Positions 61,621 to 64,000 of a stretch of 64,000 nt of DNA are shown one piece after another. The notes under the pieces are model-generated. The model saw nothing but the letters and a program-made list of their open reading frames with translations, searched no databases and was not told where the DNA came from. Source of the stretch: an uncultured Marinoscillum sp. (GTDB taxonomy: Bacteria > Bacteroidota > Bacteroidia > Cytophagales > MED-G16); NCBI GenBank assembly GCA_902529805.1, contig CABZXU010000006.1:18243-82242 (forward strand), read 5' to 3'. Within the stretch, counting starts at the first letter, position 1. Every line of letters starts with the position of its first letter. Both the position numbers and the translations under genes were made by a program.

Positions 61621-62192
61621 TGTATCTATTATTTTATTTATTTTTATATTTTATAAACTTCAACATGTATTCACAAGAAAAAAACTACTTCTATGAAATA
61701 AAAAAATTTCATGAAAACTATTCTAAAAAGGCAATAGTCTCAAGATTTGTTCATAGCGTTGGTTTCAGATATTATTGGGCTACTCAAGGATTAAGGAGTG
61801 AAGATTTAAATTTTAAACCTTCTGATTCAGGTATTAATACAAGAGAAACTTTAGAACATATATATGGGTTATCTATTATGATTCATAATGGATTTCATAA
61901 TAAAGAGATAAAACGATCAAGATCTTATCCAGATCTATCTTATGATGAGTTAAGAAAAGGAACACTTGATTTTTTGGAAAATACTGTAATTCTTCTTGAG
62001 GATTATTCTGACGATGATTTTGAAAATTCTAAAGTTATTTTTGGAGAACAGAAATATGATATTTTTAATCTATTTCACGGACCTATATCAGATGCTTTAT
62101 ATCATATTGGTCAAGTAGTTTCATACAGAAGATCATCTGGTAATCCTATTCCTAAAGGCGTTAATCATTTTATGGGCATTAAAATGGATTAA
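61620..62192 (+). CDS. DinB-like domain protein with signal peptide
   Basis: A 190-aa protein. A hydrophobic N-terminus (LLFYLFLYFINFNMYSQ) looks like a signal peptide, followed by a DinB-like four-helix bundle: SRFVHSVGFRYYWATQGL, RETLEHIYGLSIMIHNGFH (His ligand), and DALYHIGQVVSYRRSSGNPIPKG (second His pair and the family C-terminal motif). The metal triad appears intact. The exported location is unusual for DinB proteins, which are mostly cytoplasmic. Its TAA stop merges with the left tRNA-end-like repeat. Confidence 0.82.
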   Translation: MYLLFYLFLYFINFNMYSQEKNYFYEIKKFHENYSKKAIVSRFVHSVGFRYYWATQGLRSEDLNFKPSDSGINTRETLEHIYGLSIMIHNGFHNKEIKRSRSYPDLSYDELRKGTLDFLENTVILLEDYSDDDFENSKVIFGEQKYDIFNLFHGPISDALYHIGQVVSYRRSSGNPIPKGVNHFMGIKMD

Positions 62193-62209
62193 GTGGGCCC
62201 ACCAGGACT
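62191..62209. repeat. Left tRNA-3'-end-like direct repeat (possible att site)
   Basis: AAGTGGGCCCACCAGGACT. Read on the minus strand it is AGTCCTGGTGGGCCCACTT, i.e. the last part of a T-arm, a TGGGCCC acceptor strand and discriminator A, like the 3' end of a GGGCCCA-type tRNA. The same 19-mer with one mismatch recurs at 63657 in the same orientation. It overlaps the DinB-like stop codon. Confidence 0.5.
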
Positions 62210-62226
62210 ATCACACACATTAGTAC

Positions 62227-62252
62227 TGCATAATGTACGATTGTACATTGCA
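62227..62252. other. Hairpin between two convergent genes
   Basis: AATGTAC and GTACATT pair around a 4-nt GATT loop, flanked by TGCA on both sides with a 2-nt bulge. It is not followed by a T tract, so it is not a typical terminator. It lies just inside the left att-like repeat. Confidence 0.45.
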
Positions 62253-62295
62253 ACTTTTAGTCAGTTCTCATCTCAAATTTCTCTACCTTATGGAG

Positions 62296-63054
62296 TTAAT
62301 TTATTATTTTAAACTCATTTCCACAACTAGTACAGAATTTTATTGAATATTTTGATTTTTTTCTTCCACAATTACCACAAAAAAGATTTTTATCATCTTT
62401 TTTTTCTGAACTATTATCAGTTTTTGACTTTTTTATCTGACTTGTTATTGGATTAAATATTTCTTCGACTGATTCTTTACCCCTTATACCTCTAAAAAAT
62501 CTTGCAATTGGGGTATTATATATCGTGTCTTTAATTGACCAATTTTTTAATTTTTCATTAGTTTTCTTATCATAATTTTCATTATTAGATTTTTCAAAAC
62601 CGACACTGACTGCAGACTTAAAAATAAATATAAGACCTAAAAAGAGGAAAGTTAATAACCAAGGCGGTAAATTTTTAGCATCACTAAAAAGAATAAATAT
62701 ACCAAATCCAATTACTATAAAAGGGCCAGTCCACCTTACAACATCATGAAGAAATTGTTCTTCCTTATTTATCATTATTCTTCTTTCACCAGAGAATAAA
62801 TTAACAATAGGTGAAAGTATAGGTTTAATAGACTCTATAATATCATTGAGAAATTTATTATGAAATAATTTAGTAATAGTTTTCTTAATTGACTGAATGT
62901 CATTAACATACTTCCATCCGTAATACATAGAAATTAAAGATAAAATCACTGCTAATTCCACAGAAGAAAACATCAAATATCCAATTACCCATGATGGGAT
63001 TGTGAAAAATATTAGGGATTGAATCTTAAAAAGTAATAAAAAAAAATTTTTCAT
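62296..63054 (-). CDS. Membrane protein with C-terminal zinc ribbon
   Basis: 252 aa from the ATG at 63054 (the track uses a TTG inside a -7 box). Hydrophobic segments at about 3-25, 28-46, 110-130 and 135-155 put a basic loop (FHNKFLNDIIESIKPILSPIVNLFSGERR) between TM pairs. The cytoplasmic C-terminus holds a treble-clef/zinc-ribbon motif, LFCGNCGRKKSKYSIKFCTSCGNEF (CxxC...CxxC). No family name is recognised. It is divergent from the HNH gene and convergent with the DinB-like gene, within the tRNA-repeat-bounded segment. Confidence 0.7.
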   Translation of the reverse strand: MKNFFLLLFKIQSLIFFTIPSWVIGYLMFSSVELAVILSLISMYYGWKYVNDIQSIKKTITKLFHNKFLNDIIESIKPILSPIVNLFSGERRIMINKEEQFLHDVVRWTGPFIVIGFGIFILFSDAKNLPPWLLTFLFLGLIFIFKSAVSVGFEKSNNENYDKKTNEKLKNWSIKDTIYNTPIARFFRGIRGKESVEEIFNPITSQIKKSKTDNSSEKKDDKNLFCGNCGRKKSKYSIKFCTSCGNEFKIIN

Positions 63055-63060
63055 TATCAA

Positions 63061-63089
63061 CAAATTTAAACATTTAATAATATTTCAAA
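63061..63089 (-). promoter_or_regulatory. Candidate promoter of the zinc-ribbon membrane protein
   Basis: On the minus strand TTTG (63089-63086), a 17-nt spacer and TAAATTTG (63068-63061). The ATG follows after 6 nt, implying a very short or absent leader. Confidence 0.5.
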
Positions 63090-63134
63090 ATCTCTCCACT
63101 TTTGAATTTTTCTTGGATAGTTGTAGGTTTGGTT

Positions 63135-63440
63135 ATGGACAACATAGTTTTAATGTATATAGGTATCGGCTTAATAACGATATTAAGTGTCTATTGGAAC
63201 ATTAGAACAAGAGAGAAAAACAGAATAGCAAGAAGAGATTATTATAGAGAATACTTAAAATCAAATGACTGGAAAAAGAAAAGATATGTTGTTTTAAAAA
63301 GGGATAACTGGAAATGCAGATATTGTGGGAAAAAAGCAACTCAAGTACACCATCTAAAATATGCTAAATATCAGATTGGCAAAGAGCCAATTAAATGGTT
63401 AGTATCAGTTTGTGAGCCTTGTCATAAATCTAAACATTAA
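63135..63440 (+). CDS. Membrane-anchored HNH endonuclease-like protein
   Basis: 101 aa from the ATG at 63135 (the track's TTG start at 63102 adds 11 residues and is less likely). A single N-terminal TM (about 4-21, VLMYIGIGLITILSVYW) is followed by a basic linker and an HNH domain typical of Bacteroidota: YLKSNDWKKKRYVVLKRDNWKCRYCGKKATQVHHLKYA, then LVSVCEPCHKSKH. The zinc cysteines (CxxC x2) and the catalytic His-His are intact. Membrane anchoring is unusual for HNH nucleases and could mean acting on DNA entering the cell; that is inference. Confidence 0.8.
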   Translation: MDNIVLMYIGIGLITILSVYWNIRTREKNRIARRDYYREYLKSNDWKKKRYVVLKRDNWKCRYCGKKATQVHHLKYAKYQIGKEPIKWLVSVCEPCHKSKH

Positions 63441-63656
63441 ACAAAAAACCGACTAATTTTCCTTTACTGTCGTAAATTTAAATGTTCAGTTTACTCTAAA
63501 TGAGTTTAAAAAGCATGTGATACAAAATATTTCAAAAAACCTTATTTCTGAAGGTTAAGTATTCATTTTAGGAATTGTTAATAGAATGGTAACACTTATT
63601 GATTTTATATCAAAATTGACACCATCGTGCATCCTCAGAGTCGGGATGAGGGGTAA

Positions 63657-63675
63657 AAGTGGGCCCACCAGGGCT
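63657..63675. repeat. Right tRNA-3'-end-like direct repeat (possible att site)
   Basis: AAGTGGGCCCACCAGGGCT, one mismatch from 62191-62209. The following TAAACC extends the similarity to a tRNA T-loop on the minus strand (GGTTTAAGCCCTGG then TGGGCCC-A). The two copies are 1466 bp apart in direct orientation and bracket the zinc-ribbon and HNH genes. Confidence 0.5.
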
Positions 63676-63801
63676 TAAACCTTCACTTGTTCATAATATT
63701 GAACCAATGTTCATTTTAACTACTTATTAATCTCAAAATTCAATTTACAAATTATCATTAAATATGTACCCAGTATTTTTAATTTAATTTCCCTTTCTGG
63801 T

Positions 63802-63835
63802 TTTGAAGTTCAATTTCTAGTTATTACTACATTTG
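63802..63835 (+). promoter_or_regulatory. Candidate promoter of the DUF4379-like gene
   Basis: TTTG (63802-63805), a 22-nt spacer and TACATTTG (63828-63835), ending 3 nt before the ATG. The spacer is a little long. The mRNA would be leaderless if this is used. Confidence 0.4.
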
Positions 63836-63838
63836 TTT

Positions 63839-64000
63839 ATGAGAAAAAAAAGTCTTACGGAAACTCACCCCGAAATTGCTAAACAATGGCATCCTACCAA
63901 AAATAGAGATTTAACCCCTAGTAATTTTACGTATGGATCAGGAAAAAAATTCTGGTGGAAATGTGATAAAGGCGAAGATCATGAATGGATCAGCACCATT
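63839..64000 (+). CDS. DUF4379-type zinc-ribbon protein, N-terminal part (runs off the window)
   Basis: Not in the ORF track. The ATG at 63839 opens 54 codons to the window end: MRKKSLTETHPEIAKQWHPTKN, then DLTPSNFTYGSGKKFWWKC. This is the PF14311 (DUF4379) repeat: a Trp-His-Pro-Thr-Lys-Asn motif, then WWKC with the first zinc Cys and HEW of the second half. The repeat is usually in tandem, followed by a restriction-endonuclease-like domain, so a nuclease is likely. The downstream part is needed to confirm this. Confidence 0.75.
   Translation, partial: MRKKSLTETHPEIAKQWHPTKNRDLTPSNFTYGSGKKFWWKCDKGEDHEWISTI

What the first reader, a model, noticed from the sequence alone, without database searches (positions are those of the whole stretch)
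62191..63675. tRNA-3'-end-like direct repeats bracket a 1.5-kb accessory module
AAGTGGGCCCACCAGGACT at 62191 and AAGTGGGCCCACCAGGGCT at 63657 are direct repeats. On the minus strand each reads as the tail of a GGGCCCA-acceptor tRNA (part of the T-arm plus TGGGCCC-A). Integrases of tRNA-targeting islands leave such fragments. Two in a row suggest nested or successive insertions, with the intact minus-strand tRNA expected beyond the right edge. Everything between them is absent from the housekeeping layout to the left.
Basis: partly seen in the sequence, partly recalled or inferred. Interest (0 to 1): 0.65.

Follow-up and report, generated by a model that had tools for sequence, protein, structure and literature searches.

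The report
tRNA-Met tail repeats bound inserted cassettes
Two copies of the last bases of a methionine tRNA gene mark where small foreign gene cassettes were inserted one after another beside that tRNA in a small-genomed marine flavobacterium; this is a known way for ocean bacteria to collect genes, seen here in another lineage and at two tRNA genes.

Summary
In detail: both repeats are present as stated (0 expected by chance). They are displaced 3' ends of an elongator tRNA-Met: 17 nt at 62193, and 24 nt with one mismatch at 63659. In ten genomes of the same family the identical core is the 3' end of an intact tRNA-Met; in six of them that gene lies on the opposite strand, 1.8-6.2 kb right of this dinB. 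The window ends at the contig end. The tRNA and its right-hand neighbours are missing from this 89%-complete assembly, so the intact gene probably lies just beyond the edge. Best reading: successive insertion of small cassettes (A 62210-63658; B from 63683, cut off) into the tRNA 3' end. Cassette A's end sequence recurs in one relative (MED-G19), there abutting the intact tRNA. The same genome has a clearer array at tRNA-His: three 47-nt tails with shared cassette ends. Relatives show the same arrangement beside intact tRNA-His, and two have an integrase next to a tail. No integrase lies in the window, and in relatives dinB is not directly adjacent to the tRNA. This is a new member of a known kind, the additive tRNA-cassette islands.

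The parts
   Evidence: ORF; 50-90% identical orthologues in 11 family genomes; same MscS-dinB order in relatives. No Pfam or NCBIfam match, so the DinB name is not confirmed here
62193..62209 (-). att1: 17-nt displaced 3' tail of tRNA-Met
   Evidence: identical to the tRNA-Met 3' end of G001
62210..63658 (.). cassette A
   Evidence: lies between the two tails; its two proteins are absent from the 14 other family genomes
62296..63063 (-). cassette A gene: hydrophobic protein of about 252-255 aa with a weak C-terminal zinc-ribbon pattern
   Evidence: ORF; sub-threshold zinc-ribbon matches
63099..63126 (+). promoter-like sequence shared with accessory genes on C17 and C20 and with G005
   Evidence: exact or near-exact copies
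63135..63440 (+). cassette A gene: 101-aa HNH-domain protein with hydrophobic N-terminus
   Evidence: Pfam HNH 3.5e-5 and several PHROG HNH families
63609..63658 (.). end arm of cassette A next to att2
   Evidence: homologous to the bases abutting the intact tRNA-Met in G005; 0 of 2000 shuffles score as high
63659..63682 (-). att2: 24-nt displaced 3' tail of tRNA-Met, one mismatch
   Evidence: alignment to G005 tRNA-Met
63683..64000 (.). start of cassette B, cut off by the contig end
   Evidence: contig C6 ends at window 64000
63839..64000 (+). 5' part of a gene with a DUF4379 treble-clef zinc finger, in cassette B
   Evidence: Pfam PF14311 1.6e-15

Best explanation
This is the left part of an additive cassette island at an elongator tRNA-Met gene. 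A tyrosine recombinase probably recombined incoming circular cassettes with the 3' end of the tRNA. Each insertion restores an intact tRNA using the cassette's own copy of the tail and leaves the old tail behind on the far side. Cassette A left att1; cassette B then inserted into the restored tRNA and left att2. The intact tRNA-Met would lie beyond the right edge, followed by the HAD-phosphatase/ddl/dnaG block. Shown: the tails and their identity with the tRNA 3' end, the conserved site in relatives, the shared cassette end beside an intact tRNA in G005, and the same architecture at tRNA-His in this genome and in relatives. Inferred: the enzyme, the order of events, circular intermediates, and the place of the intact tRNA. 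No integrase is in cassette A, so it is probably non-autonomous and moved in trans.
For: Only two copies of the core exist in the genome. The same core is the 3' end of intact tRNA-Met in ten family genomes. dinB and tRNA-Met share a contig in six relatives, with variable content between. The elongator tRNA-Met and the right flank are missing from the own assembly, as expected if the contig broke at the array. Cassette A's end arm abuts the intact tRNA in MED-G19. A tRNA-His array with three 47-nt tails and shared arms lies on C17; intact tRNA-His plus a nearby tail occurs in G003, G004 and G007; an integrase lies beside a tail in G006 and G011.
Against: The intact tRNA-Met of this genome was not seen. 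No integrase lies in the visible part, and the own genome's only integrase besides two XerC/XerD-like ones lies on another contig among housekeeping genes. The arms to the right of the two tails are not similar to each other, so A and B need not use the same recombinase. The acyl-CoA dehydrogenase and flavodoxin that lie between dinB and the tRNA in most relatives were not found in this assembly, and the model does not explain that.
Confidence: 0.85

Rival explanations
1. One composite element: a larger integrative element (tycheposon or phage-satellite type) entered the tRNA-Met once, already carrying an internal tRNA tail at 63659; its integrase lies beyond the contig end.
For: The right part is unseen. 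Integrase-bearing elements do exist at tRNA-His in relatives. Methylophilaceae tycheposons start at a tRNA-Met (PMC10872708).
Against: The arm left of 63659 matches an arm that abuts an intact tRNA in G005, so 63659 was probably itself the end of an inserted unit. Short units with tails at both ends recur at tRNA-His.
Confidence: 0.1
2. Assembly artefact: the two tails were brought together by a chimeric join near the contig end.
For: The genome is a draft in 55 contigs, and the module lies within 1.8 kb of a contig end.
Against: The two cores share only 16 exact bases, shorter than usual assembly k-mers (own knowledge). G+C content is even across the module. The MED-G19 assembly independently has the arm-core junction next to the tRNA.
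Confidence: 0.03
3. The repeats are not tRNA remnants but another palindromic GGGCCC element such as a terminator or a protein-binding site.
For: GGGCCC is a palindrome, and each repeat lies outside the annotated reading frames.
Against: The match extends over 17 and 24 nt into the T-arm, in the same orientation, and the core occurs once (G011: twice, on two contigs) in the other family genomes that have it, always as the end of tRNA-Met.
Confidence: 0.02

Closest known systems
Additive flexible genomic islands at tRNA genes (Alteromonas, PMC4119200; Ca. Actinomarinales, PMC7771536; Ca. Methylopumilus fGI-2 at tRNA-Lys, PMC10872708)
   Same: Small variable cassettes added at a tRNA gene, with direct repeats of part of the tRNA at cassette ends; the tRNA in question can be a single-copy essential gene.
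   Different: Different lineage (Flavobacteriales-level relatives, MED-G19 family) and tRNAs (Met and His). Conserved cassette end arms shared with integrase-bearing elements were seen here at tRNA-His; I did not check whether those papers report such arms.
Tycheposons (Prochlorococcus; Methylophilaceae, PMC10872708)
   Same: Insertion at tRNA genes, including tRNA-Met; cargo-carrying; marine bacteria with small genomes.
   Different: Described as 4-200 kbp with a tyrosine recombinase; cassette A is 1.45 kb with none. The original tycheposon paper was not available here.
Integron cassette arrays without an integrase (CALIN; PMC11389934)
   Same: Tandem short units without an integrase, with recombination sites between them, possibly moved in trans.
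   Different: The sites are tRNA 3' ends, not attC hairpins; no integron integrase was identified.
Integrative elements at tRNA genes using tyrosine recombinases in general
   Same: Displaced tRNA 3' tails as attachment-site remnants.
   Different: No integrase in the unit; two tails in series.

Membership tests
Additive tRNA-cassette genomic island | Direct repeat of the tRNA 3' part at cassette ends | tested here: met
   17- and 24-nt tails
Additive tRNA-cassette genomic island | Intact tRNA gene next to the array | tested here: inconclusive
   The contig ends first and the tRNA is missing from the assembly; it is present at the matching place in relatives
Additive tRNA-cassette genomic island | Content varies between relatives at a conserved position | tested here: met
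   Different genes between dinB or MscS and tRNA-Met in family genomes; cassette A proteins absent from the other 14
Tycheposon | Tyrosine recombinase within the element | tested here: not met
   None in 62193-64000; the part beyond the contig end is unseen
Tycheposon | Size of about 4-200 kbp (PMC10872708) | tested here: not met
   Cassette A is 1.45 kb; the whole island cannot be measured
Integron / CALIN | attC-type folded recombination sites | tested here: not met
   The repeats are tRNA tails; the stretch from att1 into cassette A (62191-62300) folds no better than shuffles
Site-specific integration by a tyrosine recombinase | Excision and integration at the core | not testable with these tools
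   Needs reads with junctions or an experiment

The most novel reading that the evidence does not exclude
In this small-genomed flavobacterial family, tRNA-Met and tRNA-His serve as capture sites for a shared pool of integrase-less cassettes with conserved end arms. They would be mobilised in trans by integrases of visiting tRNA-His-type elements or by a chromosomally fixed integrase: an integron-like system built on tRNA tails.
Probability: 0.25. Interest if true: 0.6.

Novelty: new member of a known kind. Interest (0 to 1): 0.33.

Why it matters
It places a marine flavobacterial lineage among the bacteria that collect genes at tRNA ends, and it offers a reason why the assembly breaks there. 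The tRNA-His arrays, with defined cassette ends and a candidate integrase in relatives, make trans-mobilisation of integrase-less cassettes testable in a laboratory host.

Tried and rejected
Looked for the intact tRNA in the window and in the whole own assembly: not present. Looked for the right flank in the assembly: absent, so no contig could be joined. Searched for the arm-core junction in viral contigs: none; in genome contigs: only MED-G19. Searched for relatives of the two cassette A proteins in viral contigs: none. Looked for 16-nt exact tails of the 29 tRNAs present in the own assembly: none elsewhere. Folding of the region after att1: no better than chance. Similarity of Met and His end arms: not convincing (30 of 1000 shuffles as good). 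The promoter-like repeat at 63099 was considered as a cassette site and rejected: it lies just upstream of start codons, and looser variants occur across the genome, which looks like the usual promoter of this phylum (the promoter type is own knowledge). A k-mer repeat survey of the whole genome gave mostly AT-rich chance repeats. Williams 2002 was not held; the tycheposon search returned only later papers that mention it.

Full report
Observation. The two 19-mers are present at 62191 and 63657 and nowhere else in the window within three mismatches; shuffles give none. In the draft genome (1,648,311 bases, 55 contigs, 89% complete) the 14-nt core GTGGGCCCACCAGG occurs only at these two places. 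The window's last base is the last base of contig C6. ARAGORN finds no tRNA at either site.

What the repeats are. In ten other genomes of the same family the identical core is the 3' end of an intact 75-nt tRNA-Met(CAT). Measured against those genes, the first copy is a 17-nt tail (62193-62209) identical to the tRNA of the same-genus genome G001. The second is a 24-nt tail (63659-63682) with one mismatch to the GGGCTT variant of the gene as in G005. The AA in front of each copy is not part of the tRNA; at 62191 it belongs to the dinB stop codon.

Where the intact gene should be. In G001, G003, G004, G005, G008 and G009 the same dinB lies on one contig with the tRNA-Met, which is on the opposite strand 1.8-6.2 kb to the right. 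Beyond it, where the contig reaches far enough, come a HAD-family phosphatase gene (not seen in G004), ddl, nifU, mrp and dnaG; these names are my reading of the sequences. The own assembly contains none of the right-flank genes tested, and its only tRNA-Met has the initiator-type CGCGGGG 5' end. An elongator tRNA-Met is essential, so the gene must be in the missing part, and the simplest place is beyond the window edge. The prediction that dinB is followed directly by the tRNA fails: most relatives have an acyl-CoA dehydrogenase and a flavodoxin between, and others have different genes. For the first the own assembly holds only a 51% identical copy elsewhere, and for the second no match. Their absence here is unexplained.

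Cassette A. Between the tails lie two genes: a hydrophobic protein of about 252 aa with a weak zinc-ribbon pattern, and a 101-aa HNH-domain protein with a hydrophobic N-terminus. Neither has a relative in the 14 other family genomes. The function of the cargo is unknown; an HNH protein suggests a nuclease. The 50 bases next to att2 on cassette A's side are homologous to the bases that abut the intact tRNA-Met in G005 (MED-G19, NTKI01000004.1). The arm-only alignment scores 35; 0 of 2000 shuffles reach it, and other relatives score 12-23. This is expected if att2 was the 3' end of the working tRNA after cassette A had inserted. Cassette B begins at 63683, with a DUF4379 zinc-finger gene cut off by the contig end.

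A clearer example in the same genome. Contig C17 carries three 47-nt tRNA-His tails in tandem (2414, 3547, 6037), and contig C31 starts inside the tRNA-His gene. Several units share a left arm (AATCTAAAATTTTTATACCAAAATGCAAAATGGAGGTAGGT, with variants) and right arms that start TTTTTTCTTACAATGCTTGCA and continue to TGACAGTTATTTGACAG or TTGGCACTTATTTGGCACC. In G003, G004 and G007 the intact tRNA-His is followed by a tail 1.2-1.5 kb away, which is the architecture proposed for the window. In G006 and G011 a tyrosine integrase (348 and 333 aa, 93% identical) lies next to a tRNA-His tail, and the intact tRNA-His of G006 carries the same right arm as the cassettes. Units with and without an integrase thus share ends at tRNA-His. 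That the same holds at tRNA-Met is inference; the Met and His arms are not convincingly similar.

Mechanism. The most likely mechanism is integration of circular cassettes by a tyrosine recombinase at the tRNA 3' end, with restoration of the tRNA by the incoming tail. This is established for tRNA-targeting integrases in general (own knowledge); here it is inferred from anatomy. Cassette A has no integrase, so an enzyme supplied in trans is likely.

Comparison with known systems. Additive flexible genomic islands in Alteromonas (PMC4119200), Ca. Actinomarinales (PMC7771536) and Ca. Methylopumilus (PMC10872708) are described in the same terms: cassettes at a tRNA gene with direct repeats of part of the tRNA. 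Methylophilaceae tycheposons also start at a tRNA-Met but are large and carry a recombinase. The window fits the additive type; the tycheposon features tested are not met in the visible part.

Verdict. The added value is the new lineage, two tRNA sites in one small genome, and shared cassette ends with a candidate integrase that can be tested.

Noticed in passing
own contig C17 2400-8300 (L167) and C31 1-57 (L147): Array of three 47-nt tRNA-His tails in tandem with shared cassette arms; the tRNA-His gene itself is cut at the start of C31. Further arm-like repeats without a tail lie at C17 7156, 7703 and 8244.
   Followed up: partly
own contig C18 7128-8333 (L165); L263 943-2079; L264 1366-2514: A tyrosine-integrase-like gene sits in the same gene neighbourhood in three family genomes, and nearly every family genome has one hit of similar length. 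The G000 copy keeps the HxxRH-type motif (HDTRHTF), but the G009 copy reads NDAVNTY there, so it may be inactive or repurposed.
   Followed up: partly
window 63099-63126; own C17 1336 and 8509; C20 22931, 23380, 27052, 30456; L076: A near-identical 28-nt promoter-like sequence (CTTTTGAATTTTTCTTGGATAGTTGTAG) precedes several unrelated accessory genes, including one in G005 beside tRNA-Met; possibly a shared promoter of imported genes.
   Followed up: partly
window 62227-62252: Imperfect inverted repeat TGCATAATGTAC-GATT-GTACATTGCA just inside cassette A, 17 bases after att1; it could be a recombinase arm site, but folding of the region is not better than chance.
   Followed up: partly
L076 (G005) and L082 (G013), between the left neighbours and tRNA-Met: Reading frames of 1433 and 1737 aa (one homology cluster) occupy the dinB to tRNA-Met interval or the DNA next to tRNA-Met in relatives; a shorter relative occurs in G009.
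   Followed up: no
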